A DNA stretch of 64,000 nucleotides from a virus. Made by a program: the position numbers and the translations under genes. The stretch spans positions 1 through 64,000 of IMG/VR virus record IMGVR_UViG_3300005264_000064. The stretch is one strand, 5' to 3'. This document shows, in pieces, positions 11,425 through 38,840 of this stretch (position 1 is the stretch's first letter; each line of letters starts with the position of its first letter). The notes beneath the pieces were generated by a model that was not told the DNA's origin, searched no databases, and was given only the letters and a program-made list of their open reading frames with translations.

Positions 11425-11431
11425 GCCGTCC

Positions 11432-12998: not shown

Positions 12999-13007
12999 GA
13001 ATAAGAA

Positions 13008-14255: not shown

Positions 14256-14339
14256 TAAGTAACCACTGAAGACCATTAAGCAAGGTTTAAGCGTATAAGT
14301 GATATAGCACCTCTAAGATAACATCAAGGAGGTATCACG

Positions 14340-14531: not shown

Positions 14532-14557
14532 AACAAGATAACATATAAGGAAACAAG

Positions 14558-15055: not shown

Positions 15056-15061
15056 TTAGTA

Positions 15062-15081
15062 GAGGTCCTAGTGGGGACCTC
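15062..15081 (+). terminator. Hairpin between virion genes
   Basis: GAGGTCC and GGACCTC form a perfect 7-bp stem with a 6-base loop in a 52-base gap. There is no T-run after it, so it may be a weak terminator, an RNA-processing site or an mRNA stabiliser. Confidence 0.5.
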
Positions 15082-15107
15082 GTCTAAATACTTATAAGGA
15101 TTAATCA

Positions 15108-19893: not shown

Positions 19894-20448
19894 ATGACTA
19901 AAAATAAATATGGCAACACGTCGTTCAACACAAGACCTTCTACATACACGGATATGATGTATGGGACTGGGAAATATAAAAGCTATTCCCCCTCAATGTA
20001 CAGTGATGTGTACACAGGGGCACAAATGTCAGGCGGGCCTATTAAAGTAGCCCCCTCACAGGTTGGTGGATTCCCTGAAGGACTCGCCGGCAGTAAGCTA
20101 GCGGGGGTCTACGGGGCGGTAGGTACAAAAGTACCTCAGACGAAGACAGGTCCAGGTTGGATGGGTAAAGGTGGTTACTTGGATACAGGTGCTAGCGTTG
20201 TCGGTGCTCTTAGTGGGCTAGCAAGCGCATACACAGGGTACAAGGGGCTACAACTAGCTGAAGACGAATTTGAGTTTAATAAAGCATTGTCACAGACTAA
20301 CCTAGCTAATCAGGCGAAGTTGATTAATGAGCAAAGGCTTAACGCAGGTAATGTTGGACTCGCGCTAGCAGGGAACACTATGTCTGAAGCAGATAGGACA
20401 GCTACCAGAAGTAAAATTACTGCAGGCAATGTTGCCGGAAAGATATAG
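19894..20448 (+). CDS. Virion-associated protein, Gly/Tyr-rich
   Basis: A 184-aa protein with a disordered Tyr/Ser/Gly-rich first half (MMYGTGKYKSYSPSMYSDVY), a hydrophobic Ala/Gly stretch (VVGALSGLASAYTGYKGL) and a helical C-terminus. No family recognised. GGAG precedes the start and a late-type promoter lies upstream. Position among ejection-type proteins suggests an internal virion component. Confidence 0.5.
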   Translation: MTKNKYGNTSFNTRPSTYTDMMYGTGKYKSYSPSMYSDVYTGAQMSGGPIKVAPSQVGGFPEGLAGSKLAGVYGAVGTKVPQTKTGPGWMGKGGYLDTGASVVGALSGLASAYTGYKGLQLAEDEFEFNKALSQTNLANQAKLINEQRLNAGNVGLALAGNTMSEADRTATRSKITAGNVAGKI

Positions 20449-20457
20449 GGAGACACT

Positions 20458-22398
20458 ATGGGTAGACCAATATCGTGGAAAGATGTAGGATTTAGAGGTG
20501 GAAGTGCAGCCAACATGGCAGTAGCTCAGCGGGGGTTTAATAACCTCGGCAAAGCTGCTAAGGACTTTCAAGATAAAATAGCAAAAGATGCTGCTTACGA
20601 GGATACGCTGCAGCAGAGAGCAATTGAGAATGAGAGAGCAGATACTAGTCTAAGACTGTTGCAGAATGCTGATACGAGAGCGCAAGGTGAGGTTACCAGA
20701 GCACTTACAAGTGAGCAGGCTATCAAGGACGCGCTTCTGGGTACAGCCAAGAGTGCAGCAATAGATAGCAAAGTAAACAACGCGTATGAAGAGTTGACTA
20801 AGAGGTTCAAAGGTAACTATGGTACTGGATTAGAGACAGATGAGTACACGCGAGAGTTGGACAAGCTCAACGCACAGGCGATAAACGCGCACAAGCAAGG
20901 GAATATCTTTGGAACTGTGTATGACTCACATGCCTATGGGCAGAGAGTGCTGGAGGAGGCCTTGAAAAATGGTGCGACCCCTAGTGAAGCGAAGGCTGCT
21001 GGTGTACATGCAGAGAAGATGTATGAGCAGAGATTGAGTAATGAGGACGCAGCACGTAAGGCACAGCTTCTGGGTACTATCAATGCTAGCGAGACAGCTA
21101 ATGTCAAAGCAATTATGGATAGTGTGTCGACCGTGACTAGCAAGACTGGGACCACCAGCGGAGGTAAGGGAAGCAGTAAAAGTGGTCCAGGTAGTAACAA
21201 AGCCTTTTGGACAACACCTGCTGCAATGAACATGGACGCCACAATAGCGACTCTTAAGAAGAACGGCGTGGACGACAGCTGGCTGAATACTGACGGGGAG
21301 TTAAAAGACGCAGGGAAATTGTCGGAGGTACTTAGGAGTGCGTATACTACAGACCCAAAGACAGGGAAAGTAGTATACTTCTCACCTAAGCTGCAGTCTG
21401 ACTTACTGACGAGAGCGATCGGGTCTAATACATTTGCGGGTAACCAAGTAGTTACTGATAGGCTAGTTAAGTTGATTGAAGAGGCTAAGAAAGATCCACT
21501 GTTGTTGCAGTCTATATCGTCTGGGCACGATGGTAGCAAGGGCGGGCGTACCAGCAGTGTGTCAGTGAAGTCGAAGCAGATGTCACAGGCACAGAGTGAC
21601 GCGATAGCTAGCCTTAGGACTCAGGCAAGAAACGCAAGGGCAGCGATTGAGAGAGAGTACGCGCTACCTACTGCCTCTAGCGAATTTAGTAAATACTTCG
21701 GAGGTGGACAAAAGACTGTAGAGCCTGCTGTAGTGAATGGAAGTAAGACGAACAAAGAGGGCAAGGTGTACAAGACAGCAGGTAATGACTTGCTGGTGGA
21801 AACAGTAAAGAAGACGAAGCCGAAGGTCGACAGCAGGGGTGGTACCCAGACAACGAATAGTACCGAAGGTACGAACGATGCGGATATACTGTCTAGAGCA
21901 TTCGAGCAATCAGATGCGCAGGCAGTTGAGAATGAGAAAGACGGGTTTGGGGGAGAGCAGCTAACAGCCTTAGAAAAAGCTGTAGCACTTCGTGCTGAGC
22001 AGCAAAAACAACGACAACTCGATACCCGTAACGACAGAGAAATTCTTAGGGACAGGCTGAAAACACAGGTAAATCCTACAGGCAGTGGCGGGCAAGATCC
22101 TTTTAACTTGAAGGATGCACGAGCACAACTTAGCTGGTTGAGTGATACTTTAGGGTTAAATGACAAAGGTATTAACATTGATATAGACCCTCGTAACTTG
22201 CAGAGTGGCCTATTCACACAGCAACCAACTAGTCCTCGTAGGAATAAAATGTTGCAAACTCCTCAACTAACTCCGTTGCAGTTAAGTGAAATAGCGAAGC
22301 AACCACCAGAGGAACTAGAGCGTACCTACAACAAATTAGGCGAGTTAGACAAGTTGTTGCTTGCGCAATACCTACAGACACATAGAAAGAAACAATAA
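20458..22398 (+). CDS. Internal virion protein, largely helical
   Basis: A 646-aa protein dominated by Ala/Lys/Glu/Gln helices, with low-complexity Gly/Ser/Lys linkers (GTTSGGKGSSKSGPGSN) and a Gln/Arg-rich C-terminal third. No enzymatic motif was seen. Size, helical content and location directly upstream of the virion RNA polymerase fit the N4 gp51-like internal proteins that enter the cell with the polymerase. AGGGAG precedes the ATG. Confidence 0.5.
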   Translation: MGRPISWKDVGFRGGSAANMAVAQRGFNNLGKAAKDFQDKIAKDAAYEDTLQQRAIENERADTSLRLLQNADTRAQGEVTRALTSEQAIKDALLGTAKSAAIDSKVNNAYEELTKRFKGNYGTGLETDEYTRELDKLNAQAINAHKQGNIFGTVYDSHAYGQRVLEEALKNGATPSEAKAAGVHAEKMYEQRLSNEDAARKAQLLGTINASETANVKAIMDSVSTVTSKTGTTSGGKGSSKSGPGSNKAFWTTPAAMNMDATIATLKKNGVDDSWLNTDGELKDAGKLSEVLRSAYTTDPKTGKVVYFSPKLQSDLLTRAIGSNTFAGNQVVTDRLVKLIEEAKKDPLLLQSISSGHDGSKGGRTSSVSVKSKQMSQAQSDAIASLRTQARNARAAIEREYALPTASSEFSKYFGGGQKTVEPAVVNGSKTNKEGKVYKTAGNDLLVETVKKTKPKVDSRGGTQTTNSTEGTNDADILSRAFEQSDAQAVENEKDGFGGEQLTALEKAVALRAEQQKQRQLDTRNDREILRDRLKTQVNPTGSGGQDPFNLKDARAQLSWLSDTLGLNDKGINIDIDPRNLQSGLFTQQPTSPRRNKMLQTPQLTPLQLSEIAKQPPEELERTYNKLGELDKLLLAQYLQTHRKKQ

Positions 22399-22455: not shown

Positions 22456-23598
22456 ATGAAAGATATAAACTTAAACGACCTATTGCAGCCAGCTGACTTA
22501 GCGGTTGAGGGAGTTACAGCAGCGTTGCCTGCATATACACCAGATACTAATACAAATACAAGTAACCCGAAGGTAGCGGGACTAGAAGCACGTAAGAAAG
22601 CTAAAGTTACCTCGTTGTCTGGTACCTTTCAGGCTGATACACTGTTGAGGATGAACGACGCCGACAGTCTGGTAACTACATTGTCAGTAGCGGATGTAGA
22701 AGACCCGATGTATGCCGGTGGAAACACAAGAAGTGCGACGGATGTGAAGTACGGGTACGACGCTGTTGAGATAAGCCATGAGAGAGCCGACGGTAGTGTG
22801 AGTGACCCTCTTGCAGAGATTAAGAAAAATAAGTGGAAAAGACCTCAACTAGACTTAGTGGCAAGTTTGATGGGGAAGACTGTTGATGAGGTTACTAGCC
22901 AGGATGTGAATGACGTTGGTAACATGCAGCAGATACAGAAGTTGGCGGATCTTAGTAACCCTGAAGGTCATGGGTGGAAGGCTCCTCTGATTAAGGGTAG
23001 TGAACGCACGGATCTGACTGGGTACTACAAGGATGAAAATGGTAAAGACCTAGACATCCCGTTGAATATATCGATTACAAGTAAGCAGGTTGGTGAGGGT
23101 ACTTATAGACCGACGTACTCGTTTGGCAATGTCGATGGGTATGACGTGACTAAAGCGACTGAGAACGACCCTAGACTTAATGCGAATTATGCGTACGCAC
23201 AACAAGCTAGCGATGCAGATGCTGAGAGAATATACCAGAAGGCGTTAGCAGAGCTTAATGGTGATGGGTATTTAGAGACTATGATGAAGAACACTGCGGC
23301 TGGAGTTGGTGCGATGGCTGCTGATTCTGTTGATGCGGTATTTGACTTAGGTGCCGGAATAGGACAAAGAGCATATGAAGGCATTACCGGAAAGAAAGTA
23401 AAACCTGAGGACTTGAAGAACTTAGGTATGCTCGGATTTGAAGTGGACGACAATGGGTACGTCCAACATAAATGGGACTATGAGAAAGGCAAGGATGCCA
23501 TTGACAGTAAAAAGGCATACCAGAACTTACTTGGAGTTGATAATAGTAAAATAGAGGAGAGTGCTGCTGCATACACCAGTACTACCATATCGAAGTAG
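22456..23598 (+). CDS. N-terminal part of virion RNA polymerase
   Basis: A 380-aa ORF with its own promoter-like motif and an AAGGAA site. The end, SAAAYTSTTISK, stops at TAG 23596-23598. The next frame, though its first usable start is a GTG at 23610, is open back to about 23550 and encodes protein-like sequence (EVVPPLVVDSFVYMKAL) straight through this stop. A one-base shift would fuse the two into one protein of about 2890 aa, closer to N4 vRNAP (about 3500 aa). N4 vRNAP has a large N-terminal domain with no known motif, and none is visible here except an Ala/Gly-rich segment (GVGAMAADSVDAVFDLGAGI). Confidence 0.65.
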   Translation: MKDINLNDLLQPADLAVEGVTAALPAYTPDTNTNTSNPKVAGLEARKKAKVTSLSGTFQADTLLRMNDADSLVTTLSVADVEDPMYAGGNTRSATDVKYGYDAVEISHERADGSVSDPLAEIKKNKWKRPQLDLVASLMGKTVDEVTSQDVNDVGNMQQIQKLADLSNPEGHGWKAPLIKGSERTDLTGYYKDENGKDLDIPLNISITSKQVGEGTYRPTYSFGNVDGYDVTKATENDPRLNANYAYAQQASDADAERIYQKALAELNGDGYLETMMKNTAAGVGAMAADSVDAVFDLGAGIGQRAYEGITGKKVKPEDLKNLGMLGFEVDDNGYVQHKWDYEKGKDAIDSKKAYQNLLGVDNSKIEESAAAYTSTTISK

Positions 23599-23609
23599 TA
23601 CCCCCATTA

Positions 23610-26600
23610 GTGGTCGACTCGTTTGTGTATATGAAAGCACTGATGAGTCCTAAAACTGCGGTACAAATGCTGATGGGTGCCACTAATCAACATCTTGAAG
23701 AAAGACTGAAGAATAATGATGGTGATCATGCTAACTGGGAAGAAGTACTAGCTGCAAGTGCAGGAACATCTGTGGAACTGGCTACGGACTTAATTGCAAG
23801 TAAAATGACCTTTGGGATAGGCAAAGGCGTAGGGGCAGTAAATAAGAGAATACTAGGTGCACTGTTCGGTGCAGCGGAGAAATCTAGTAAAAGTATGGTG
23901 AAAACTGTAGCAGTTAAAACAATGAAGACTATAGTCGGAGCTGGAGCAGTTGCCGCAGAAGAAGGCTTAACAGAAGCTGCACAAGAAGCAATGGGTGTCG
24001 TAATAGAGAGGCTACATACGGCAGGATACTCTGACGGTGACATAGATAAGATGTTTGACGAGAAGACTATGAAGAGAATCCGTGAAGCAGGGTATATGGG
24101 CGCATACATTGGTCATGGTCAAGCTGTTATGGGTAAAGGCTTGAATGCTGTCGGGTACGGTGCCGGAAAAGGTGCTAAAGGCCTGGCAGAGAAGATCAGT
24201 AACAAGTACAAGAAAGAGAGCGGTACCGATAAAGCAAGTAATAAAGCACGTGTCGCTGCGGTTAAGAAAAGGTTGCAGGCGGACCTGCGTACACGTGGCG
24301 AATACACGGACACTGTGGACTTAAGCGCACTACCTGATGAGGGGTTGATGGGGCAGTTCAAGGAGTTGAAAGTCCTGTATCAGGCATCTCAGCAGGTTGG
24401 CGATGATAGATTAGAGAAGGAATATGGTAAGAGACTGAAGTTGTTTACAACTGAAGTCGGTAAGAGACTTGGGGATAGAAAAGGTAGCGTAGAGGGACTA
24501 ATAGATAGACCGTTAGGGAATAGAGAAGTTGCCGGAGACTTCTACGACGAGGCGTTTGACGCAGCTGCAGAGGCTATTGATGACGGTAGTGCGGACTACG
24601 AGACAGCGAAGCTGATACACGCTTTAGGTGGGTTAGACGCTGTGAATATTGATGGTATTAACGACAACGTTAAGGACATGTTGAAGCAGATTGATGGTGA
24701 CTTGGCAGACGTGATGACAGCGGAGTTTGTTGATAAGAGTTCACAGAAAGATACTGCTATCGGGAAATTTGTTAAAGATAGTGCTATGGATAGAGTGGAG
24801 AGTATCGAGAAAGCATATAGAGATACGTCGGGTACTATCCAGAAGTTGCAGAATAAGTACATAAATGTACTGAAGAAGATCGGCAAGAGTAGAGTGAAGG
24901 ATGGTACCAGCACGAAAGGTGCTGGTGATACTGACTACAGTATTGGGTTAAAGGCGGTTGCTGCTGGAGAGAACGTAGAGGCATTGAGAGACCTGGTAGG
25001 TGAGACTAGTGATGCCGGGGTGGCTGTGAAAGACGTGATACAGCATTTGATTACGTTGCATAATAAGGAAGATAAGAACAGTACTGTCGTAGGTAAGAAA
25101 ATAAAGGTGGCTGAGGATAGGCTTAAGGGGCTTATCAGTAGGGCTAAGAGGGTCGGGGCGAAGATTAATACTAGTACGCAGAGGGCTGGGTACGAGACGT
25201 TAGTGACCACTGTGGCGGAGATCGGTGAGCTTAGAGCACAGGTAGAGGGTACGGAGGATGCTGAGAAGCGTGCCGAGGCTAGTGCTACCTTAGGGGTGTT
25301 AGAAAAGAGTTTGAATGAGCAGCTGATTGGTAACACGCTGTTTAATAAAGATGCTGTTATGGACAAGTTAGTAAGTAACTTGAAGGCAGTGAAGAAAAAG
25401 CAGGATGCAATTAAGGTACTTAGCAGCAAGAAAGATCTACAGGCGTTTATGAAAGCTTATGGGCGTAGCATTAAAAGTCCGAAGATAAGAAAGGCAGTTA
25501 ATGCTGCGATTAAGAAGATGAAGGCGACAGACAAGATTGGCGGTCTTAGTAAGGGCGTAAGAGCAGCTATACTGAGGGCGGCTAGGGTGAAGAGAACTGA
25601 GTTCTCAAAGAAGGTAAAAAGCACTGAGAGTGCAATCAGATTTGTTGGTCTGGAGAGATACAACGGTAATAGTGTAAAGAACGGTGCACTGGATATTATT
25701 GCTGGCGCGTTGGCAGATAAAGAAGTCACAGTTGTGAAGAGCATCGAGAAAAGAAAAGAGACTAAGAGTAGAGTTGACGAATTGCGCGAAACAGTGAAGT
25801 CACAGATAGCGGATGACACTGGGCTTGAGAGCTTGACAGTTAGTGGTAAAAAGAGACGCAAAGTAGCAGGTAATCTAGGTACGTTGGAGAAGACACTCGA
25901 AAGTGGGGAGAGTACCCAGAAAGAACTGAGAGAAGCGTATGCCTCGCTAGAAGCGTATAAGAGAAAGTTAGATGAAGAGCATAAGGAAGCGCTGGACAGT
26001 CTTAAGGAAGTTCATGAGATTAAAGCGGACATTGAAGAGAATGCTGTCGGGGATGCCTTTCAGGAGATGCTGATGAGTGTTATCAGCGAGCATGACGGGG
26101 TGTTGAGTAAGGCTGCTGTTGGTAGTTTTATAACTAGAGCTAAGGCTACTATATCAGCAACTGAGAGAAAAATAGAGCTTAAGGCGCAGTTCGATGCAGT
26201 AGGAATGCCTACAGTAGAGACTATTGATAGAGCACTCGAGTTAGGGTCTATTGATGATGAGGCTGCTGAATTGATGAAAGAGGTCATTGCTAGTGACCTT
26301 GACGCTGGAGAGATGAAAGTTTTCGGCGAGTTAGTTAAGTTTATGTATAGCATGGTTCCTGGGATGGACTCAGCGGATGTGCTTAGTGATGAAGATGTAG
26401 CAGGTGTACTAACTAGTTACCTTGAAAGTAGGGTGGACATGATGTCTAAGGCATCTAAGGTACTTGGGGCGAAGTCACCGATTAAGGTTGCTGTGAAGGA
26501 AGAGAAGATCGCAGGTATTCATGAGAAGACTGCGGAGACTATTGATAGATTTAGATCGACAAGGGAAGCAGTACAGCAAGATATGCAGGCTGAGTTGAGG

Positions 26601-29600
26601 AAGATTAGAACCGCTAAGACTATGCTGTCGGTGGATAGACGTAATAAAGAGCTATCTAGAAAGCAGAAGAGTGGCCTGCAAGCGTTGTTGAAAGACGCTG
26701 AGGATAATATCAAGAAACTTAAGAAGAGTTTGATGGTTGAGACGGGCCAGATGGTTAAGGTTATCAATGAGAGCTCTTTAGAGGCTGCAGTTAACGATGA
26801 GTTGAAGAAGCCTACAGGAAAAAGAAATAACGTAGGTAAGGTTGTTAATACTATTGAGAGTCACAATGAAGGTGGTAAGAACCATAAGGATGTGACATCA
26901 GCGTTGAATTCAATAGTGGCACTGACTGACATGGTTACTTTTAGTGACACTATGGCTAATAGCATTGACTTTGAGGCTCAAGAGGCGTTGAAGGCATTGG
27001 CAGATGACGTTAATGAAGTGCTAAGTGAGGCGTTTTATAAGGGTACTGATGTAGATTTTAATGTACATTTGTACGCGAAGAATGTAGTACAGAGATCGCT
27101 GATGACGTTGGCGGAAGGGGCTAACAAGAGTAAGCTGGAAGGTAAGGACCTTAAGTTTACAGATACTGTTGCATTTGCGATACATACGACGGCGATGAGT
27201 GTGCTGGACACAGAGTTACTGGGGTGGATCGGGTACAAGGATGACGAGCAGTTGAACAAGTTCTTCGGTAACCCTGAAGCGACGGGTGAGTTGCCCGGTA
27301 GTAATAAGGCAGGTAAGTTGAGACATGCGTACCCATTGAAGTATGCACAAGACCATGCAGGTAAGATATTTGCAAAAGCGTTGGGTATGGACTTTAAGAC
27401 AGCTGCAATTTCAGATAAGCAGAGAGCAATAATATACACGCAGTTGGGGCATATTATAATTACGTACATGAAGCAAGCTGGGTACCTGAAGAAAAAAGAC
27501 TTAGTTTACACTGTGGAACAGCAGAATGTGCATAGAGTTAAAGGTAACAAGATTACGTCGGCGTCAGCGGCTACTCAGAACTTTGTAGTGGTAAACGACC
27601 AGTACAAAGGTAAGAACGTTGAGAAGCTTAGAGCGTTGATAAATGAGGGTGGTATTAGTGACTTCCTGGATGTGTTTATGCCGGATAGAGAGGCGAATAA
27701 GAAGTTTGATACTGTGGTAGTGCACGGAAAGAATGATACCCCGAAGAATACGATGATAGGTAAGAACTTGTCAGTGTTGTCTCAGGATGCGATTAGCAGT
27801 GCGGAGAATACTGCGTATACGTTGAATCAGGAGAAGACAAAAGAAGTGCTGGCAGAGTACGATCAGTTGACTGTGAAAGAGGACGGTACACTCAAAGACC
27901 CTCATATGGACGAGGCAGAAATTGTCGAGTATGTTAATGAAGGGGTAGCGAGTAAGTTCTTCACTCAGTTCGGTGTGATGACGCCTAAAGAGATTGCTGG
28001 TAGTGCGATGCTGTATTCGGATAGAAATGCAGCGTATGAGAACTACAGCACATTCGTGCGTACTTTAGGGTACTTGAGAGAGCTTGATGATAATATTGAT
28101 AAGACTAGAAAAGACATAGCTAGTGTGATTGGTGGTGATAACGTAGGTGCGTTGCCTGTGTATACTAAGTACTTTTACAGTAAGAATGGTAGATTCTTTA
28201 TGGATGCAGCTAATGGCCTGAATCCGCAGACAGAGAAAGAACTGGCTAGATGGTTGTTGACTCCTAGTGGGACGACTAGCCAGGTGGTTACGAGTAAGGA
28301 AGTTATGACTGACGAGCGTAACAGCGGTGTGTTGAATGCTGCTGTTGGTGTAGCGCAGGCATTTGGGCACAGCATTGACAAGTCTACTACGACAGAGTCT
28401 ATTGCCTTTGGTACTAGAATGCTGCAGATGAACTTAGCTGAACTGAAGAGTATGCGTAACAGACTTGCGGCCGGTGAAGACGTGCAAGTTGAATATGGGT
28501 ACAGAGCGATTAACTTTGTCGATGGTAGTGAGAGTGGTGTACTGAAGAAGACTGCGTCTATTGGTAAAGAGCATGAGGTACAAAGACAAGTCGTGTTAGA
28601 TAGCTTGATTGAGAGAGCTAAAGGTAGTGACTCGTTGACTGCTCCGTACGAGATTGACGGTGTGACTAACGGTACTTACTTCAAGACAGCGGAGGCACCT
28701 GTTATCGAAGGGTTCGAGAGTATGTTGAGTAAGACCGGGTTTTATACTGAGAATATGAAGATCTTTGGAACTACTTTTGGGAAGTTGACGGTTAAGCCGT
28801 CGTCTCAGGATGTAATAGCGTTGACTAGACATGTTGCCGCGGGTAAGTCTGATGAGCAGATTGCAAAGGAGTTAGGCTTTGCAGAGCTGCAGATGAGTGC
28901 TGCAGAGAAGAAGTTCTTTAATGACGCGTACGTGTCTATCATTGATGGGTTTACTGTGTTGGAGACTGCTGATGATGCGATGGTATGGGTTAGAGATAGA
29001 CTAAAGAATCTCGACAAGGGCATGGTTAACGCTGGGATTGTGGCGATACCTCAGCTGTATGGTAGTGTAAGACACTTTATGCCGTCAGCGAAAGATAGGT
29101 TAGGTATGGTAACTAAGGCGTTTAGAGATTTTGTCAAATATCCGAAGATGACCTTCGACTACGGTGCGGCGGTGAATAACGTTAGAAAGACATTCGTTAA
29201 TGACATTACAAACGCAGTACTGACTAACGTGTTAACAGAGGCGCAAGAGTTGTTAGAGAGCACTGGAGACATTGACAGAAAGAAGTACGAGAGTCTTCTT
29301 GGCTTGCTTATAGCAGATGCTGCTAGCGCTACAGATAAGGACATTAGAAAGGCTGTGGCTGACGCTGTTGCCGGTATGCAGAAAATGGATATTGAGAAAG
29401 CTGTTAAGATGCCTAAAATGGCTAGCATGGATGTTGTGAAAATTAACGGTAAGATTGTTAGCGTAGGTAAGAACGTTACGTTGCACGGTATGGTCAGTCA
29501 GATGGTTGACGTCCTTGAAGGTAATATGATTAAAGATAAGCTGTTGAAGGACAGTAGTGCGCTGATTGATTATAATAATACGTTGAATACTGCTGCGAAG

Positions 29601-31139
29601 CTTATGGGACATATATTTAAAGTGAAGCTTGAAAAAGGTCTTGAGAAGATAACAGAGTATAACAAGGCTGACCTTAGCGCCAGGGGTATTGACGTAAGTA
29701 AGGTGGAAGCGTCTGTTACTGAGCCTAGTATAAAGCAGGTAGAAGAACTTATAGTTGAACTGGACAGACAAGGGTTTACGCCAGTTGTCAAAGTACCGGG
29801 AAGTTCGGTTGGTGACGGCTCTGGTATTGAGCTGATAGACACTAAGGTGGCTAAAGATAGTGATTCTGTACAGGCACCGTTAGCGGAGGGTGCTAAAGAG
29901 GGTAAGAACTCTATGAGCAAGACGGTATCGACTATATTGAAGGAGCCTGCTGTAGTGCACGCGCTAGCAAGTGTAACAGATACTCACTTCAGTGATGGTG
30001 CAGCGATGGCAGAGTTGTTGAAGAGATATGGAGTGACACCGATACATGACGCTGTTATACTAAACGGGGCGATTGCAGATAGAATTTCAGAGCTGTACGG
30101 GGAGAAGAGTTTTACGATTATGATGGCTCATAGCCCTGTGCACAACTATGCGGATAAGTTGAAGCAGATGTCAGACCAGTTGACAGCGGGTGAGATGGAG
30201 GTACTGTTGACTGGGCTTGAAGGCTTGCCTGACGTAGAGAAGGTAATACTCCCGGCTAGGTACGCAGTGATTGATGAGAATGGTATACCCGAATATGGGA
30301 ATACAGTACAGGAAGAGATTGATAAAGAGTCTAAAGTTGATGTTACACCTGCTGAGGATTTACTTGAGCAAATGAGAAGATGGGGATTACTCGTTGCAGA
30401 GAACAAAGATAAGCTACTGGCGCAAGACATCTGGATAAGCCAGTTAGCGGGCACTGTGAACGGCGTGTATGAGTACAAGCGCGGAAGTATTTCACACGGT
30501 CTTACGGAGATCGAAACAGGACTAACGCATACGGAAACTGCTGTTGAGGTGACTCCGGGGGTTGTGTCAAAGAAAGTCCTGCCTGAGAGACTCTTTAAAG
30601 TGATATGGGGACATACTATAAGACAGGCAATTGGCGAGATTACAACGATTAGCGCAGTGGACCGTACACTTGTCAACACGGAACTGAGGAAGGCTGTAAA
30701 TGAGAATCCGGAACTTGCAGAAGATAAGAAGTACTGGAGCAGTAAGAAGGGTCTTGTCAGCGCACTTACAAAGATCTCAGTTATTGTAGGGCAACGAGAA
30801 GGAAAGCTTAGAGAACTTACTGACGGCGACGTAAATGAACTGATACAGCTTCTGCACAGCGCAGCGGGTACGGAGACTCCTGTTGCTATCATTGACCTGT
30901 ATAATGAGTACATCCTACCTAAGTTGAAAGAGAGAGGTCTTGATGACTTAGGAGAGTGGGTGGAGGATGAAGTGGGGAGTACCGATAGAGCAAATAACCA
31001 AGAGGAAGAAGATATAAGCGGTAATGAAGCTGAAGAAGAGTATACTAGTGAAGATAAAGTTGCTGAAGGTATTAGCGGTCTAGACGATCCAGTAGCACAG
31101 CAAATAATAAGAGACAACTTAAATGAATGCGGAGCGTAG
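23610..31139 (+). CDS. N4-like virion RNA polymerase (vRNAP)
   Basis: A 2509-aa giant single-subunit RNA polymerase packaged in the virion and injected to transcribe early genes from hairpin promoters. Signatures in order: SKNGRFFMDAANGLNPQ (GR motif, R1528), NFVDGSESG (motif A, D1638), RDFVKYPKMTFDYG (motif B, residues 1839-1852, aligning with T7 R627, K631 and Y639) and PIHDAVIL (motif C, D2147). The 110-residue distance from the GR motif to motif A equals T7 spacing. The first 1500 residues are helical (injection domain). The GTG start at 23610 lacks a ribosome-binding site, so the true N-terminus is probably the 22456 ORF. It ends in TAG, in frame with the next gene. Confidence 0.88.
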   Translation: MVDSFVYMKALMSPKTAVQMLMGATNQHLEERLKNNDGDHANWEEVLAASAGTSVELATDLIASKMTFGIGKGVGAVNKRILGALFGAAEKSSKSMVKTVAVKTMKTIVGAGAVAAEEGLTEAAQEAMGVVIERLHTAGYSDGDIDKMFDEKTMKRIREAGYMGAYIGHGQAVMGKGLNAVGYGAGKGAKGLAEKISNKYKKESGTDKASNKARVAAVKKRLQADLRTRGEYTDTVDLSALPDEGLMGQFKELKVLYQASQQVGDDRLEKEYGKRLKLFTTEVGKRLGDRKGSVEGLIDRPLGNREVAGDFYDEAFDAAAEAIDDGSADYETAKLIHALGGLDAVNIDGINDNVKDMLKQIDGDLADVMTAEFVDKSSQKDTAIGKFVKDSAMDRVESIEKAYRDTSGTIQKLQNKYINVLKKIGKSRVKDGTSTKGAGDTDYSIGLKAVAAGENVEALRDLVGETSDAGVAVKDVIQHLITLHNKEDKNSTVVGKKIKVAEDRLKGLISRAKRVGAKINTSTQRAGYETLVTTVAEIGELRAQVEGTEDAEKRAEASATLGVLEKSLNEQLIGNTLFNKDAVMDKLVSNLKAVKKKQDAIKVLSSKKDLQAFMKAYGRSIKSPKIRKAVNAAIKKMKATDKIGGLSKGVRAAILRAARVKRTEFSKKVKSTESAIRFVGLERYNGNSVKNGALDIIAGALADKEVTVVKSIEKRKETKSRVDELRETVKSQIADDTGLESLTVSGKKRRKVAGNLGTLEKTLESGESTQKELREAYASLEAYKRKLDEEHKEALDSLKEVHEIKADIEENAVGDAFQEMLMSVISEHDGVLSKAAVGSFITRAKATISATERKIELKAQFDAVGMPTVETIDRALELGSIDDEAAELMKEVIASDLDAGEMKVFGELVKFMYSMVPGMDSADVLSDEDVAGVLTSYLESRVDMMSKASKVLGAKSPIKVAVKEEKIAGIHEKTAETIDRFRSTREAVQQDMQAELRKIRTAKTMLSVDRRNKELSRKQKSGLQALLKDAEDNIKKLKKSLMVETGQMVKVINESSLEAAVNDELKKPTGKRNNVGKVVNTIESHNEGGKNHKDVTSALNSIVALTDMVTFSDTMANSIDFEAQEALKALADDVNEVLSEAFYKGTDVDFNVHLYAKNVVQRSLMTLAEGANKSKLEGKDLKFTDTVAFAIHTTAMSVLDTELLGWIGYKDDEQLNKFFGNPEATGELPGSNKAGKLRHAYPLKYAQDHAGKIFAKALGMDFKTAAISDKQRAIIYTQLGHIIITYMKQAGYLKKKDLVYTVEQQNVHRVKGNKITSASAATQNFVVVNDQYKGKNVEKLRALINEGGISDFLDVFMPDREANKKFDTVVVHGKNDTPKNTMIGKNLSVLSQDAISSAENTAYTLNQEKTKEVLAEYDQLTVKEDGTLKDPHMDEAEIVEYVNEGVASKFFTQFGVMTPKEIAGSAMLYSDRNAAYENYSTFVRTLGYLRELDDNIDKTRKDIASVIGGDNVGALPVYTKYFYSKNGRFFMDAANGLNPQTEKELARWLLTPSGTTSQVVTSKEVMTDERNSGVLNAAVGVAQAFGHSIDKSTTTESIAFGTRMLQMNLAELKSMRNRLAAGEDVQVEYGYRAINFVDGSESGVLKKTASIGKEHEVQRQVVLDSLIERAKGSDSLTAPYEIDGVTNGTYFKTAEAPVIEGFESMLSKTGFYTENMKIFGTTFGKLTVKPSSQDVIALTRHVAAGKSDEQIAKELGFAELQMSAAEKKFFNDAYVSIIDGFTVLETADDAMVWVRDRLKNLDKGMVNAGIVAIPQLYGSVRHFMPSAKDRLGMVTKAFRDFVKYPKMTFDYGAAVNNVRKTFVNDITNAVLTNVLTEAQELLESTGDIDRKKYESLLGLLIADAASATDKDIRKAVADAVAGMQKMDIEKAVKMPKMASMDVVKINGKIVSVGKNVTLHGMVSQMVDVLEGNMIKDKLLKDSSALIDYNNTLNTAAKLMGHIFKVKLEKGLEKITEYNKADLSARGIDVSKVEASVTEPSIKQVEELIVELDRQGFTPVVKVPGSSVGDGSGIELIDTKVAKDSDSVQAPLAEGAKEGKNSMSKTVSTILKEPAVVHALASVTDTHFSDGAAMAELLKRYGVTPIHDAVILNGAIADRISELYGEKSFTIMMAHSPVHNYADKLKQMSDQLTAGEMEVLLTGLEGLPDVEKVILPARYAVIDENGIPEYGNTVQEEIDKESKVDVTPAEDLLEQMRRWGLLVAENKDKLLAQDIWISQLAGTVNGVYEYKRGSISHGLTEIETGLTHTETAVEVTPGVVSKKVLPERLFKVIWGHTIRQAIGEITTISAVDRTLVNTELRKAVNENPELAEDKKYWSSKKGLVSALTKISVIVGQREGKLRELTDGDVNELIQLLHSAAGTETPVAIIDLYNEYILPKLKERGLDDLGEWVEDEVGSTDRANNQEEEDISGNEAEEEYTSEDKVAEGISGLDDPVAQQIIRDNLNECGA

Positions 31140-31142: not shown

Positions 31143-34100
31143 ATGGGAGAATGTAAAACACCTGAAGAAGTAAAGAAGTCACTACAAGCTGCGGGGGTCA
31201 AAGGTGACTCCCTCCAGCAGGCAATGATGATAGTGGATAAAGCGAATGTACTGGTAGCGAATGGGGAAGCAACTACGAAGAACATCGCAGCTAAAATAGA
31301 CGATGGTGTCAAAGCGCCATTCGTTAACCTAGGGCTGAAACAGGTTCATGTTAGCCGTGGTAGAGGAGTTGTTACCGCTCGTGTGCTATACAACTCAGAG
31401 AACCAGGATGTAATACTACAACTCAACAAAGAAGAGTACACGTTTGGTGCAGAGGATGATTTTACTAGTAGACCGAGTAAGGCCAGTGGTAGGACTATCA
31501 GAGCCAAAGGAGTAGCAGCCCTCAGGGATGAGGGGTACGGGATGTCTTCGAAGAAGGCAGGTAGTACAGTTGTTACAACTCCTGAAGGTCTTGTGAAGGC
31601 GATAGTTAAAGGAGTGTCACCGATTAACGTGATGACTCGTGCAGGTACCAAGGGGCTTAAAGAGGCCGGGTATGTACTTTCGAGTGGTATTACGTGGAAG
31701 CTTGCGGATGGTACTAGTGAGAAGAAGGAGGCACTTGCTGACAAGGGTGTACCCATTACTCCGCGTACTGAGGTGTATCAATTAGGTGTTGACTTCCTCC
31801 AAAGTGAGAAGAATAAAGCAGTGCAGGTGTTGGTCGATGAAGTTGCTAGAGTTAAAGTTAAAGAATTTAGTAGTGTGTTCGGTGCGATTAGTGACTTAGA
31901 GACTTTCACGGTCGTGAGGCCCGGTGACAAAGAGTTCAGAGCAGAGTGGCAAGTGTTGCAGGACATTAGTCCAGAAGCTGGGGGTGTACTGTACACTCTG
32001 AGTGCTGTCAACAAAGTTGCCCATGCTAATGGCAGTAATGAAAGATTGCCTATGTACGTAAAGGTCGACGGTGTTGCTAGTGAGTTACTGGGGATTGTTG
32101 TGAGAGATGGCAGTATTAAGTACGTCGTAAAGAGCAAAGTGGTTAAGTATGTTGATGGTGGAGCGCTGAGTACCGATGAAACAAAGACTGGGAAAGAGCT
32201 TTCGGGTGGAAATGAGGTGTGGGTACTAAAGCCTAAGAACCTTAAAGACGTCGAAGGCCTTGTAGGTAGTGGTAGTGCGGAGACAGCCGAGTTGGAGAGA
32301 AAAATACAAGAGCAGTTGACGACATCGATGTTCGGGATGAACAATGCACTGAAGCCGGAGGCGTTTAAAGAGCTAGCTAGTAGAAATGCTGTAGAGTTTG
32401 AGAATGATAAGACCGCTGAGGGTATTGTCAATGTCAGTAATAACGGTAAATTAAAAGTATGGGTTTACAGAAAGAACAGCAAGGACAGCGAGGGCAATCA
32501 TAAGTTGGCTGGTGTAGTTGAATCAGAATATGCTGTTGGTGATAAGGTTGTGCTGAGTGATAAGTGGAAGAACGGCGAGATAAGGGTTGATAAGTACAGT
32601 GAAATACTGGAGAGTAACGATGGGGCTCCTGTACTGTTTAACACTAGTAACAGTAAGAAGAAGTGGAAGAAGAGCGGTTTTAAGCAGAGTAAGTATAGGC
32701 ATAAAGATGTAGTGGATAATAATGGGTTAGTGGAGCTGGCTAGGGAGTTGCAGGAGGCGTCAAAGACGGATGTTGGAGTAGAACATCAAGAACACCTCAT
32801 CGAGGTGCTGGGGCGTATTGCTGGGGCACATGTGATGGAAGAGACGGACGTGTACTTGAGTAAGAGTAGTACGAAGAATGGGATGGTTGAAGGGTTCTAC
32901 AACTATGTAGAGAAGAAAGGTATGAAGGCTGGTGTGTACTTGACGGATAGTGGGATGGTTAATACTGACGGTGATATGAGTATGTTGGAGACGTTCGCGC
33001 ATGAAGTAATACATACTATTGAGAAGACGGGGTTGTCTTTGAGTAGTCCTAGAGTGGTGCAGATTAGAAGAGAACTTGAGGCGATGCGTGAGTACATTAT
33101 GGGTAAATACGATTATACTATGTTGCTGGATGACAGCGAGACTGCCAGTAGGAGGGCTAAAAGGAAGGCGAAGGCTACTTGGGAGTACATGGTTAGTGAT
33201 AATGGGCTGCATGAATTTGTGGCACTCGGGTTGACTAACGAGAAGCTTGCGTCGAAGCTGAAAGATGTTTCGTACAAGGACGTGAAAGACGCCGGTGTGA
33301 ACAGCGTATTTGGTAAACTTATGCAGATTTTTGCTAGGACTGTTGAGGCAGTGCTTGCTGTGATTAAAGGTGAGGTGCCGTTAGGGCGTAAAGATAGCTT
33401 TGAGGCGTTGCTACATATGAACATTGAGTTAGGGAAGATATCTAGAAATACTAAGAGGAGCAGTGTAAAGAATAACCTTAACACCTTGAGGAATACGCTT
33501 GATAAAAAAGTAAGTAATGCAATTAGTAAGTTACTGAAATCAGATAAATTGGGTACACTCGGGCTGGAGAGTATAACTAGTAAGCCTAAGTGGTTGAGAC
33601 CTTTCTTCCTTATACCTAAATTGGGTAAGTTACTGGCGTTGGGTGATGTAGGTAAGGGTACGCTGTACTATGCCCTAGACGCTATTGGTCTAGACACTGG
33701 CGGAGCATTCCAGATGTTGTTGAGGAACTTTATTACCCCGGATGACTTGGATAAGACAGTAGAGAAGTTGGGATTGTTGTCCGCTAATGTAGATACACAG
33801 AGATCTCAGATTATTAAGGATATGACAGCGAATGTTAAAGGTGAATTAGGTAAAGATATAACTGATAGGATTGAAGAAGATTTAGGTAGGGTGCTTGTTA
33901 TGGGTGACCTGCAGGCATTACTCGGTAAGTTTACGCCTAAGCAGATTAGTGCCCTTATAACTAACGACAGTAAGCTTGAAGAAGCTACTAAGAAATATAC
34001 AGATGAAGTGTTTAAAGGTGCTGGTAATAGAGGTAACATGGTGTATAACCAAGCTAAAGGCTTGGCGTATTTGATGTATAGCGGTAAAGGGAACGAGGCG

Positions 34101-36338
34101 CAGTTACCGAATGCTAGGGCGATTGTGGACGGTTTCGGTACAGCTGGGCATAAAGTTAATAGAGCTCCTAAGCTGACTAAGAGCGTTGATGTGTTGGTAA
34201 GTTTGAAGGCGTTGAAGATGCTTAAAGAGGATATTGACCCGAGTACCATTATGTATATTGAGAGTAACCCGGATGCGGTTAAGCATGTGTTGTCTGCGAT
34301 GAAGTATCATGAAGAGAACTTCTCTGGGGAGTTATTTAAAGAAGATAACTACAATAGAGTTAAGGGACATGCTGCCGAGGTCGCTAATAGTAACGTTGAG
34401 ATTAGATTTGGGCTGCTTAGTGATGAAAAGAAAATGAAGGCTAAAGGCTTTACGAAAGTTAAAGAGCTGGAGAGTAGGGTTGGTAAGGGTAAGGTAGCCG
34501 TGTACGTAAACAAGTTTCCTACTGACGCGTCGTTTACTAAGCAGGCAATTAGGTTGACTGATACTAGTAGAAGAGGTACAGATATTGAAACTATGTTGAG
34601 TAACAGCTATGATGATGAGACTCAGACGTTGATGATTGATAGTTTTAAGGCTAAGGTTGAACAGCTTACTAGTGATCAGTGGGTGTCGGATAGCACTGTG
34701 TACAGAAAGCTGATTGGTGAAATGGCTAAGAATGTGAAGAAGGACTATGAAGTGAAACGTCGTAAGTTGTTGAAGGCTTACAATGGGGACTCTAAGGCTT
34801 TTGATCGTGAGAGTGTTAACGATGGCTTTATGCCGACGTTTACTAAGGAAGGTAAGGTTGCTACGTATAGATTGCAGATGAACAGAGAGATGAAAGAAGA
34901 CCTGTTGAATTTGGATACTAAGGTTAGTAGGCTAGTTGGGCATACGTTCGGGCAGACTATGGATGTGCTGGAGACTATGAAACAGAATAAGCGTACTATT
35001 GATGTTATTGAAAGGGATATGAGGGCTAACTACAGACTTGGTAGTAAGTTTGGTAAGAACAGATTTAAGTATAAGCTAATAAAACCTATGCAAGCTGCTA
35101 AAGGTGAGGAGATAGGTTATTGGGAGATGCTGCCTTACGCGGCTAAGGAGAGGTTTAAAAAAATCGCATCAGCTCAGTACAAGAAAGCACTTAGAGAGTA
35201 CATGCCTAAAGGGCTACGTAAGGGCTCGGCGGAGTATAACGTGGAGGCTGAGAAGATTAGGGAGAAGTACTACGGGGTACCGATTAGAGAAGATTTGGCT
35301 AGGTATTATCTAGGTGAGAGATCTATGAGTGTTGCTAACACTAGACTGGTGAAGATGTTACCAGCAGCTGTTCAGAAGAATATAGCTAGGGCAGGTGCTG
35401 TGTGGGTTGACATTGTGCAGATTGCTAAGACGAATATTATTGCTAAGCTGCCGCAGGTTGTTGTAGGGAATGGTATATCGAATACTGTGCTGATGGTTCA
35501 GTACGGAGTACCTGTAACGAAAGTAGTGTCGTTACCTGCGAAGGGGGTTAGCGAGTTACACAAGTATAGAGTTAACGTGAAGAAAATTCGTGCTATAAAT
35601 GCAAAGATGACGACTGCGACAGCGAGAGAGAAAAGTAGGTTGACAATTGAAAGAAAGAGATTGGAAAATGAGAATAAGGATAACTCGGCTGAGTATTTGA
35701 TTAGAAATGGTGGATTTTTAGGATTGGTTGAAGAATTGGCAGAAGAGGATAATGCGTACAGAAATCATCTTGTGAATGCGTTTCACGGATTAGTAGGTAA
35801 GATGCCTAATATTGCACAGACGTTGGTTAATTACCTGACGTTGAACAGCAAGACGGCGCCTTTTCAGTTTATGGAGAAAGCGATACAGGAGCATGACTTT
35901 GCGACTGGGTACGCTATATTTATGCACCTCTATGGTCAGAGGTTGCTGGAATTTGAAAAGAGTAAAGGCAGTAGAGCTACGACTGCGGAACAGAATAAAA
36001 TTCGTGATGAAGTATTTATTACTTCAAAAGTGGCGACTGTGCTGTATAGTAAGTTGGATAATAAGTACGTGAAGTACCTGAATGATACTGGTCCGGTGAT
36101 CTTTACTAAATTTGCTGTAGGTGCGAACAGAGTTATTAAGGAACTGACTGAGAAACATCCTGTGAGTGCACTGATGACTATGGGGGTTCAGACAGTACTA
36201 CCTGTCGATGATATGTTAGACCACTCCATCATAGAGACAGACTGGACTAACTTAGTTAACACACCGAGTGACATTCTTGATAGCGCGTTTTACACTATCT
36301 TTGAACTGCCTGATGATATTAAAAGTGCTTTGAGGTAG
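31143..36338 (+). CDS. Large ejection-type virion protein with HEVIH metallopeptidase motif
   Basis: A 1731-aa protein. It lies in the same frame as the vRNAP, one codon past its TAG stop. GGAG at 31131-31134 gives it its own start at ATG 31143. Near residue 620, LETFAHEVIHTIEKTG is a HExxH zinc-peptidase motif. The C-terminal third is helical with some hydrophobic patches (VVVGNGISNTVLMVQYGVPV) and ends in KLDNKYVKYLNDTGPVIFTK. It is probably a DNA-ejection or cell-entry protein. It could also correspond to the C-terminal injection domain of N4 vRNAP encoded separately. The peptidase might act on the envelope or on host proteins after entry. Confidence 0.6.
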   Translation: MGECKTPEEVKKSLQAAGVKGDSLQQAMMIVDKANVLVANGEATTKNIAAKIDDGVKAPFVNLGLKQVHVSRGRGVVTARVLYNSENQDVILQLNKEEYTFGAEDDFTSRPSKASGRTIRAKGVAALRDEGYGMSSKKAGSTVVTTPEGLVKAIVKGVSPINVMTRAGTKGLKEAGYVLSSGITWKLADGTSEKKEALADKGVPITPRTEVYQLGVDFLQSEKNKAVQVLVDEVARVKVKEFSSVFGAISDLETFTVVRPGDKEFRAEWQVLQDISPEAGGVLYTLSAVNKVAHANGSNERLPMYVKVDGVASELLGIVVRDGSIKYVVKSKVVKYVDGGALSTDETKTGKELSGGNEVWVLKPKNLKDVEGLVGSGSAETAELERKIQEQLTTSMFGMNNALKPEAFKELASRNAVEFENDKTAEGIVNVSNNGKLKVWVYRKNSKDSEGNHKLAGVVESEYAVGDKVVLSDKWKNGEIRVDKYSEILESNDGAPVLFNTSNSKKKWKKSGFKQSKYRHKDVVDNNGLVELARELQEASKTDVGVEHQEHLIEVLGRIAGAHVMEETDVYLSKSSTKNGMVEGFYNYVEKKGMKAGVYLTDSGMVNTDGDMSMLETFAHEVIHTIEKTGLSLSSPRVVQIRRELEAMREYIMGKYDYTMLLDDSETASRRAKRKAKATWEYMVSDNGLHEFVALGLTNEKLASKLKDVSYKDVKDAGVNSVFGKLMQIFARTVEAVLAVIKGEVPLGRKDSFEALLHMNIELGKISRNTKRSSVKNNLNTLRNTLDKKVSNAISKLLKSDKLGTLGLESITSKPKWLRPFFLIPKLGKLLALGDVGKGTLYYALDAIGLDTGGAFQMLLRNFITPDDLDKTVEKLGLLSANVDTQRSQIIKDMTANVKGELGKDITDRIEEDLGRVLVMGDLQALLGKFTPKQISALITNDSKLEEATKKYTDEVFKGAGNRGNMVYNQAKGLAYLMYSGKGNEAQLPNARAIVDGFGTAGHKVNRAPKLTKSVDVLVSLKALKMLKEDIDPSTIMYIESNPDAVKHVLSAMKYHEENFSGELFKEDNYNRVKGHAAEVANSNVEIRFGLLSDEKKMKAKGFTKVKELESRVGKGKVAVYVNKFPTDASFTKQAIRLTDTSRRGTDIETMLSNSYDDETQTLMIDSFKAKVEQLTSDQWVSDSTVYRKLIGEMAKNVKKDYEVKRRKLLKAYNGDSKAFDRESVNDGFMPTFTKEGKVATYRLQMNREMKEDLLNLDTKVSRLVGHTFGQTMDVLETMKQNKRTIDVIERDMRANYRLGSKFGKNRFKYKLIKPMQAAKGEEIGYWEMLPYAAKERFKKIASAQYKKALREYMPKGLRKGSAEYNVEAEKIREKYYGVPIREDLARYYLGERSMSVANTRLVKMLPAAVQKNIARAGAVWVDIVQIAKTNIIAKLPQVVVGNGISNTVLMVQYGVPVTKVVSLPAKGVSELHKYRVNVKKIRAINAKMTTATAREKSRLTIERKRLENENKDNSAEYLIRNGGFLGLVEELAEEDNAYRNHLVNAFHGLVGKMPNIAQTLVNYLTLNSKTAPFQFMEKAIQEHDFATGYAIFMHLYGQRLLEFEKSKGSRATTAEQNKIRDEVFITSKVATVLYSKLDNKYVKYLNDTGPVIFTKFAVGANRVIKELTEKHPVSALMTMGVQTVLPVDDMLDHSIIETDWTNLVNTPSDILDSAFYTIFELPDDIKSALR

Positions 36339-37484: not shown

Positions 37485-38840
37485 TTATGTTAATAAATCT
37501 TTACTAAAGATATTTTCTGACCATTCCGCCATATTACTACGGATAACTTTTGACAAGTTAACAGCGTGTAGGTGGATTAGTGGCTGGGGTTTTGTTGCCT
37601 CGTTCATTAAAACAGAGAGGCCGTTGTTGAATTTGGTGACATACTGGTTATCAATCTGACGTTGAGAGCCTATAATGATTACTTTGCAGTCTTTACCAAT
37701 ACGCGTTAGCATCTTCTGGAGTGAAGCTTTAGATTGACCTTGTACTTCATCTATGATAATGACAGCGTTAGTGAACGTACGTCCTCTGAGGCCGAGGCCT
37801 GTTAGGAGTTGTATGTTGTAACTTTCGTAAGCGTCTGCTATTTTGCTTTGTATCATAGCCTCGTAGCCTGATTGTGAGCCTTTCTTCTTTGAGTACTTAG
37901 CTCGCATAATGTGTTCTAGTGAGTCTTCTACCGGGGTGAAGTACGGGTTGACCTTTTCATCATTACCGGAGCGGAAGCCCATTTCCTCGATTTTTTCAAC
38001 GTCGTCGATTGAGGCCCTGATGTATACTATTGAATCGTAGGGATTGTTGCCTTTGACTAGCCTCATAGCGTTGGAAAGAGTTACCAGGGTTTTACCGGAG
38101 CCCGCTCTTGCCTCGCATATTATAACATCGATGTCTGGGCGTTGTATTGCCCTGCTTAGGAGGAGTTGCTCAGCGCCTATCGGATTAACTTCCTGTTTAC
38201 GTAGTTCAGCCTCAGTTGCACGGCCTATGATTTCGATTACTCCACGGTGGACAATGCCTAGTTTGGTATTGCCTGACGTTAGGTCAGTGAATATGTAATT
38301 GTGGTTTTCTAGAGTGTAGTCTGGGTCTATTTCCGCAATAGCTGCGTTATGCAGATTTGGGAAGAACTCAGAGGGTACATTGAGGTGTTTTGTGAACTTA
38401 TATGTAGTCTGTTCAACTTCTTTTAGGTCAGAGACCTTGAGACCTTTAGCCATTGCTTGTATGCGGCAGGCTACGTCATTTGACATGAACGTTGTGTCGC
38501 AGAAGGAATTGTATGCAGTGGCGATTGAGATTATCTTCTGGTCGTTATTGCTGTTTTCCGGGTACGAGGGTGCTGATACTATCTTGATGGTGACATCGTC
38601 TATGATCAATGTGGCTTCTGTTAGGTTGCCTATGACGTTGTTGATCTTGATGTTAGTGGATTGTGCCAGAAGACGGCCGAATGCTCTTGCTTGATAGCCG
38701 AGTTCGTTTAAGAGTGTCTTCTTGGTATCGAGTTCCTGGACTACGGTCTCAGGAAGAACTATTGTATAGTCCTGCCCTAGTGTGAGGATGTTATTGTGGT
38801 CTAGTAGGATGATGTTTGTGTCGAGGACTAAATGTTTCAT
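37485..38840 (-). CDS. phoH: PIN-PhoH ATPase
   Basis: A 451-aa two-domain protein. The N-terminal PIN-type ribonuclease domain (KHLVLDTNIILLDH, then acidic VVQELDTKK) is followed by a PhoH ATPase: Walker A ARAGSGKTLVT, Walker B VIIIDEVQGQ and the GSQRQIDN sensor. PhoH2-type enzymes act as RNA helicase and nuclease. The ATG at 38840 overlaps the ClpP-like stop (ATGA). PhoH is frequent in marine phages. Confidence 0.85.
   Translation of the reverse strand: MKHLVLDTNIILLDHNNILTLGQDYTIVLPETVVQELDTKKTLLNELGYQARAFGRLLAQSTNIKINNVIGNLTEATLIIDDVTIKIVSAPSYPENSNNDQKIISIATAYNSFCDTTFMSNDVACRIQAMAKGLKVSDLKEVEQTTYKFTKHLNVPSEFFPNLHNAAIAEIDPDYTLENHNYIFTDLTSGNTKLGIVHRGVIEIIGRATEAELRKQEVNPIGAEQLLLSRAIQRPDIDVIICEARAGSGKTLVTLSNAMRLVKGNNPYDSIVYIRASIDDVEKIEEMGFRSGNDEKVNPYFTPVEDSLEHIMRAKYSKKKGSQSGYEAMIQSKIADAYESYNIQLLTGLGLRGRTFTNAVIIIDEVQGQSKASLQKMLTRIGKDCKVIIIGSQRQIDNQYVTKFNNGLSVLMNEATKPQPLIHLHAVNLSKVIRSNMAEWSENIFSKDLLT

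What the first reader, a model, noticed from the sequence alone, without database searches (positions are those of the whole stretch)
22456..31139. Virion RNA polymerase recognised, with its N-terminus in another frame
Seen: GR motif, motif A, motif B and motif C with near-T7 spacing identify the 2509-aa protein as an N4-type vRNAP. The 380-aa upstream ORF meets it at 23596-23610, where frame 3 is open through the stop, so a one-base shift gives a single protein. This could be a sequencing indel, a real split or programmed frameshifting.
Basis: partly seen in the sequence, partly recalled or inferred. Interest (0 to 1): 0.6.

Follow-up and report, generated by a model that had tools for sequence, protein, structure and literature searches.

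The report
Two-chain virion polymerase, terminal cysteines

Summary
The window (from a 102,937-bp IMG/VR virus record) encodes an N4-type virion RNA polymerase (vRNAP). All six catalytic residues map one-to-one to N4's.

The reported break (380 aa / 2509 aa) is real in the sequence. It is probably an indel or recent mutation: it falls mid-domain, the downstream ORF has no ribosome-binding site, there is no slippery site, and five relatives have one intact ORF there.

It is genuine. Five relatives have it at the same place (Alteromonas phage AD45-P1 and four metagenomic contigs), with all three stop codons, gaps of -1 to +26 nt and all frame relations. This excludes readthrough or frameshift, as earlier authors had supposed for AD45.

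Single-chain vRNAPs are cysteine-free (22 of 22 here). In all six split pairs each chain has exactly one cysteine: within the last four residues of the polymerase chain and at residue 4 of the CTD chain. Best explanation: an interchain disulfide replaces the peptide linker. Inferred further: the reducing cytoplasm cuts it, freeing the CTD, which autoinhibits transcription in N4. The bond itself is not shown.

The parts
22456..23598 (+). N-terminal piece of the vRNAP (380 aa, frame 1), cysteine-free, with Shine-Dalgarno AAGGA; frame broken at its 3' end
23550..23598 (+). stretch in which frames 1 and 3 are both open; the net -1 frame change must lie here, most likely after about 23569; no slippery heptamer
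23610..31139 (+). vRNAP chain 1, rest of NTD plus polymerase domain (2509 aa from the mechanical GTG, which has no Shine-Dalgarno); a single cysteine, Cys2507
28182..28199 (+). T/DxxGR motif KNGRFF, R1528
   Evidence: aligned to N4 R1421; position
28650..28673 (+). motif A EIDGVTNG, D1683
   Evidence: aligned to N4 D1556
29121..29165 (+). motif B FRDFVKYPKMTFDYG; R1839, K1843, Y1851
   Evidence: aligned to N4 R1663, K1667, Y1675
30042..30056 (+). motif C IHDAV, D2147
   Evidence: aligned to N4 D1948
31128..31130 (+). codon TGC of Cys2507, third residue from the end of chain 1, its only cysteine
   Evidence: conserved in 6 of 6 split pairs
31131..31134 (+). Shine-Dalgarno-like GGAG for chain 2 (duplex -7.1 kcal/mol)
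31137..31139 (+). TAG stop of chain 1, 3 nt before the ATG of chain 2 (same frame here; other frames and stops in relatives)
31143..36338 (+). vRNAP chain 2, C-terminal domain (1731 aa), a single cysteine, Cys4
   Evidence: PHROG 2206 E=3.5e-111; PDB N4 vRNAP for its family
31152..31154 (+). codon TGT of Cys4, the only cysteine of chain 2
   Evidence: conserved in 6 of 6 split pairs
31155..32820 (+). lineage-specific N-terminal extension of chain 2 (about residues 5-560), no detectable relative; approximate limits
33000..33014 (+). zincin-like HEVIH motif (residues 620-624) at the start of the C2-like part; [ML]EEVxH in the five AD45-type chains
19894..20448 (+). small cysteine-free gene at the gp52-like position (PHROG 2646-like), probable ejection protein
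   Evidence: role by position
20458..22398 (+). 646-aa cysteine-free gene directly upstream of the vRNAP, at the N4 gp51 position, probable ejection protein
   Evidence: role by position only

Best explanation
The locus encodes a two-chain version of the N4 virion RNA polymerase. Chain 1 (22456-31139) is the N-terminal domain plus the polymerase domain; chain 2 (31143-36338) is the C-terminal domain, made from its own start site. Shown: the split is a conserved gene architecture at the polymerase/CTD boundary, and each chain carries one cysteine, exactly at the two ends the split created. Inferred (about 0.7): these two cysteines form one interchain disulfide, so the ejected protein is still a continuous string. 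Inferred further (about 0.35): the bond forms or persists in the oxidising virion and periplasm and is reduced in the host cytoplasm, releasing the CTD that in N4 autoinhibits transcription. The N-terminal frame break at 23550-23598 is not part of the mechanism; it is most likely an indel in this contig or a recent mutation.
For: Split: same position in six phages, with stops TAG/TAA/TGA, gaps -1 to +26 nt and all three frame relations; one group in the tree, 93/94. Chain identity. Cysteines: 6 of 6 chain-1 proteins (2391-2802 aa) have one Cys, 1-4 residues from the C-terminus; 6 of 6 chain-2 proteins (1390-1731 aa) have one Cys, at residue 4. Single-chain vRNAPs: 0 Cys in 22 of 22. Background Cys in the window's other genes is 0.9%, so cysteine is strongly avoided elsewhere. 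Random placement of one Cys per chain would give this pattern with about 1e-11 even if only two lineages are counted. Other ejection-protein candidates are Cys-free, so no other cysteine partner is ejected with them as far as tested. N4 CTD autoinhibits transcription and joins the polymerase by a flexible linker (PMC12633501). Disulfides between virion proteins exist in a crassvirus particle (PMC10172136).
Against: No bond was observed; homodimeric bonds or another use of the cysteines are possible. The six pairs come from one clade, with only two deep lineages; the window's place is on a long branch. The window's record has no glutaredoxin or credible thioredoxin of its own, so host enzymes would have to reduce the bond. 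N4's C1 domain has no visible counterpart in chain 2, and autoinhibition has been shown only for N4.
Confidence: 0.66

Rival explanations
1. The polymerase/CTD break is an annotation or sequencing error, or is read through, so the product is one chain. This is the reading in the literature for AD45: GenBank 'potential frameshift'; PMC10654107 suggests miscalling or stop-codon readthrough and concatenates the ORFs.
For: AD45 record annotation; PMC10654107; in the window and in L017 the two ORFs are in the same frame.
Against: Six independent assemblies with different stops, gaps and frame relations; start sites with Shine-Dalgarno (window GGAG -7.1; AGGA in L016, L017 and L028; weak in AD45); L017 has a second in-frame stop; the terminal cysteine pair exists only in split forms.
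Confidence: 0.04
2. The N-terminal break (380 aa / 2509 aa) is biologically real: a programmed -1 frameshift, or two separate proteins.
For: Both pieces are coding and nothing but the frame is disturbed; the two pieces lie end to end.
Against: No slippery site; no Shine-Dalgarno before any early start of the 2509-aa ORF, against clear ones at 22456 and 31143; five relatives have one ORF; the break falls inside the NTD and carries no cysteine.
Confidence: 0.1
3. The split is real, but the terminal cysteines serve something else: disulfide-linked homodimers, binding of a metal or cofactor, or attachment to another virion protein.
For: One cysteine per chain also permits chain1-chain1 and chain2-chain2 bonds; copy numbers in the virion are unknown; AD45 and L028 chain 1 end in His-Cys.
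Against: Both cysteines arise only with the split and at exactly the two ends it makes; His is not conserved next to them; the probable ejection partners are cysteine-free.
Confidence: 0.22
4. The cysteines are tolerated at flexible ends by chance or shared descent and do nothing.
For: All six pairs share one origin; free ends may tolerate cysteine better than the interior.
Against: Kept at 19-25% identity between two lineages about 3.3 changes per site apart, while the rest of 23,881 residues has no other cysteine; single chains with free ends never have one (22 of 22).
Confidence: 0.06

Closest known systems
Escherichia phage N4 vRNAP (gp50; Schitoviridae)
   Same: Domain order NTD - T7-like polymerase - CTD; all six catalytic residues aligned; CTD homologous from about N4 2409 on; gene directly downstream of the gp51-like gene; cysteine-free interior
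   Different: N4 is one 3,500-aa chain with no cysteine; here two chains (about 2,890 + 1,731 aa if the NTD piece is counted), one terminal cysteine each; no visible N4 C1 domain; about 540 extra residues at the start of chain 2
Alteromonas phage vB_AmaP_AD45-P1 vRNAP region (KF005317, deposited as 'potential frameshift')
   Same: Same split at the same place (2481 + 1409 aa), same single terminal cysteines
   Different: NTD frame intact; 21-23% identity; shorter chain 2; first His of the HExxH motif replaced by Glu
Alteromonas phage PT15-A5, Vibrio phages VBP32 and BUCT194 vRNAPs
   Same: Closest single-chain layout (polymerase, short linker, C2-type CTD with HExxH at its start)
   Different: One chain, no cysteine
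Shigella phage pSb-1 three-ORF vRNAP
   Same: vRNAP annotated as several ORFs
   Different: Breaks lie inside conserved blocks with the continuation in another frame, and no cysteines: looks like indels, a useful negative control

Membership tests
N4-type virion RNA polymerase | T7-like motifs T/DxxGR, A, B and C with catalytic R, D, R/K/Y, D | tested here: met
   Residue-by-residue profile alignment, E=1.5e-43
N4-type virion RNA polymerase | Large CTD homologous to N4 2376-3500 | tested here: met
   E=7e-91 profile-profile; PHROG 2206; PDB N4 vRNAP E=4e-25
N4-type virion RNA polymerase | Single polypeptide of about 3,000-3,800 aa | tested here: not met
   Conserved split into two ORFs in six phages
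N4-type virion RNA polymerase | No cysteine | tested here: not met
   One terminal cysteine per chain; interior cysteine-free
N4-type virion RNA polymerase | NTD of N4 type before the polymerase | tested here: inconclusive
   No significant match of P0001 or P0002 N-terminus to the N4 NTD; colinear, partly weak match to AD45 NTD (E=5e-4 and 0.26)
N4-type virion RNA polymerase | Packaged in the virion and ejected | not testable with these tools
   Needs virion proteomics
Schitoviridae (N4-like phage) | Hallmark genes: portal, major capsid, tape measure | tested here: met
   PHROG 1216 E=3e-177, PHROG 1357 E=6e-85, PHROG 2120 E=4e-73; formal classification not attempted
Programmed -1 ribosomal frameshift (at 23550-23598) | Slippery X-XXY-YYZ heptamer in the zero frame | tested here: not met
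   None in the doubly open stretch
Stop-codon readthrough (at 31137) | Downstream ORF always in the same frame | tested here: not met
   Frame relation varies among six phages
Disulfide-linked heterodimer | One reactive cysteine on each partner and none elsewhere | tested here: met
   Cysteine placement in six pairs
Disulfide-linked heterodimer | Observed covalent S-S bond | not testable with these tools
   Needs non-reducing gels or mass spectrometry of virions

The most novel reading that the evidence does not exclude
A disulfide bond replaces a peptide linker in a giant ejected enzyme and works as a redox fuse: it keeps polymerase and inhibitory CTD on one string during transit through tail and periplasm, then is cut by the reducing cytoplasm, so transcription switches on only after delivery.
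Probability: 0.35. Interest if true: 0.88.

Novelty: new variant of a known kind. Interest (0 to 1): 0.74.

Why it matters
How a 3,500-residue enzyme is pushed through a 35-angstrom channel and becomes active only inside the cell is an open question. These phages offer a natural experiment: the chain is cut at one linker and, apparently, rejoined by the only two cysteines in the whole enzyme. That makes the roles of chain continuity and of CTD inhibition testable with one isolated phage (AD45) and a reducing agent. It also corrects an assumption in the literature that the AD45 split is a gene-calling error or readthrough.

Tried and rejected
Programmed frameshifting at the NTD: no slippery site. 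Homologues of the 380-aa piece: none in phages or IMG/VR, so the break could not be checked on a close relative. Pfam and PHROGs do not recognise the polymerase chain; PDB sequence search misses the polymerase part; only profile-profile comparison and weak tblastn hits to AD45 see it. AlphaFold of the polymerase domain with six sequences failed (pLDDT 35.5), so no fold search was made. IMG/VR scans with P0002 alone and P0003 alone found nothing; repeated alignment scans added no further split pair. The window's lineage-specific start of chain 2 matches nothing. A phage-encoded redox partner as a required part: no glutaredoxin or credible thioredoxin in the window's record, although four of five relatives have glutaredoxin-like matches, perhaps serving their ribonucleotide reductases. 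I first equated the window's HExxH with the N4 C1 motif; searches place it at the start of C2, as in A5, VBP32 and BUCT194. The original AD45 paper (PMC3821669) is not held, so its own view of the split was read only through its GenBank record and PMC10654107.
Full report
What was checked. ORF 22456-23598 is in frame 1, ORF 23610-31139 in frame 3, and frame 3 is open from 23550 onwards, so a net -1 change anywhere in 23550-23598 would fuse them. The window is part of a 102,937-bp virus record with N4-type portal, capsid and tape-measure genes.

Polymerase identity. The 2509-aa protein alone aligns to the RNAP domain of eleven schitovirus vRNAPs with E=3.8e-18. As a family of six it aligns with E=1.5e-43, and R1528, D1683, R1839, K1843, Y1851 and D2147 fall on N4 R1421, D1556, R1663, K1667, Y1675 and D1948. 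Motif A is EIDGVTNG, which fits the published vRNAP motif ExDGxxxG (PMC10654107). The spacing is wider than N4's and not T7-like. Structure prediction was attempted and failed, so the fold rests on the profile evidence.

The N-terminal break. Relatives found by a polymerase-domain alignment and a CTD alignment, plus AD45, all have one uninterrupted ORF from the NTD to the end of the polymerase: 2481, 2431, 2802, 2510 and 2391 aa. Residues 21-197 of the 2509-aa ORF align to AD45 528-684 (E=5e-4), and the end of the 380-aa ORF aligns, weakly but in the right order, to AD45 315-410 (E=0.26); so the break lies inside the NTD. The 380-aa ORF has a Shine-Dalgarno site (-6.1 kcal/mol), the 2509-aa ORF has none at its early starts (-1.4 to -3.1), and the median of other genes is -5.8. 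There is no slippery heptamer. Codon statistics, helped by three TGC codons that frame 3 would otherwise use, place the change between about 23569 and 23598. The most economical reading is an indel in this contig or a recent mutation. Without reads or a second genome this stays an inference.

The second, conserved break. The polymerase ORF ends at TAG 31137-31139 and a 1731-aa ORF begins at ATG 31143 with a GGAG site (-7.1 kcal/mol). That ORF is the vRNAP C-terminal domain: PHROG 2206 E=3.5e-111; its family profile hits solved N4 vRNAP chains with E=4e-25; profile-profile E=7e-91 to N4 from about residue 2409 on. In N4 the polymerase ends near 2103, a flexible linker follows, and the CTD spans 2124-3500 (PMC12633501). 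AD45 has the same division, 2481 + 1409 aa, deposited as one 'potential frameshift' feature and put down to miscalling or readthrough in PMC10654107. Four further contigs have it: 2431+1390, 2802+1394, 2510+1439 and 2391+1394 aa. Junctions differ in stop codon (TAG, TAA, TGA), gap (-1 to +26 nt) and frame relation. Readthrough or frameshifting cannot give that; two genes can. In the CTD tree the six split pairs form one group (93/94), with the window and the base of the AD45-type clade about 3.3 changes per site apart.

The cysteine pattern. Published work notes that N4-like vRNAPs have no cysteine and explains it by passage through the tail and the disulfide-forming periplasm (PMC2784036, PMC3915230, PMC3715699, PMC4837373). 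All 22 single-chain vRNAPs counted here have none; the annotated Klebsiella phage BaqKoxi protein has one only in a leader upstream of the start shared with pSb-1, and the L023 ORF may be incomplete at its 5' end. In all six split pairs each chain has exactly one: in chain 1 (window, AD45, L014, L016, L017, L028) at 3, 3, 4, 1, 2 and 1 residues from the C-terminus, counting the last residue as 1, and in chain 2 always at residue 4. The window's other genes hold 0.9% cysteine. The two probable ejection-protein genes upstream in the window, and the gene just upstream in L014, L016, L017 and L028, are cysteine-free. So, as far as tested, the terminal cysteines have no cysteine partner in the ejected set other than each other or copies of themselves. 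They persist at 19-25% identity between the two lineages.

Mechanism. Shown: two genes, conserved position, one cysteine at each new end. Inferred: an interchain disulfide restores the string NTD-RNAP-S-S-CTD. This would keep order during ejection, as the peptide linker does in N4, where a beads-on-a-string passage is proposed (PMC12633501). It would also be the one linkage that the cytoplasm can cut. [quoted passage not shown] Disulfides between virion proteins are known from a crassvirus structure (PMC10172136). Against over-reading: no bond was seen; the C1 domain of N4 has no visible counterpart here; homodimer bonds are possible; the timing of bond formation is open.

Control. Shigella phage pSb-1, whose vRNAP is annotated as three ORFs, has breaks inside conserved blocks (one within the HExxH helix) with the continuation in another frame, and no cysteines. 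The window's N-terminal break resembles that kind; its polymerase/CTD break does not.

Verdict. The reported frame break is real in the sequence but probably ordinary. The polymerase identity is right. The notable finding is next to it: a genuine two-chain vRNAP with a cysteine at each end of the cut, seen in two deep lineages of one clade.

Noticed in passing
window 40895-43969 (-): The 1024-aa ribonucleotide reductase gene matches B12-dependent RNR insertion-domain and RNR families and carries an intein-like segment with a LAGLIDADG match.
   Followed up: no
window 37485-39403 (-): PhoH-PIN fusion and ClpP-like protease genes just downstream of the vRNAP module; AD45 has a ClpP-like gene at a comparable place.
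   Followed up: no
window 31155-32820 (+): About 540 residues at the start of chain 2 have no detectable relative in AD45-type chains or single-chain vRNAPs.
   Followed up: partly
L002 9896-9916 region and equivalents in L014, L016, L017: In the AD45-type chain 2 the zincin HExxH reads [ML]EEVxH (first His lost), whereas the window keeps HEVIH. N4's own HExxH (2228) belongs to a different subdomain, C1; PG11 has both motifs.
   Followed up: partly
L028 (CALIBI010000067.1): A phage contig of this lineage is binned in a Sulfolobales archaeon MAG; probably a binning contaminant.
   Followed up: no
L035 805-850: The annotated start of Klebsiella phage BaqKoxi vRNAP seems to lie upstream of the true start; the product is annotated as DNA polymerase.
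   Followed up: yes
L030 (pSb-1) 5194-15982: The three-ORF vRNAP of Shigella phage pSb-1 looks like two indels inside conserved blocks rather than real genes.
   Followed up: yes
records of L002, L014, L016, L017: Four of the five split-vRNAP relatives have glutaredoxin-like matches, two of them over the family cut-off; the window's record has none.
   Followed up: partly
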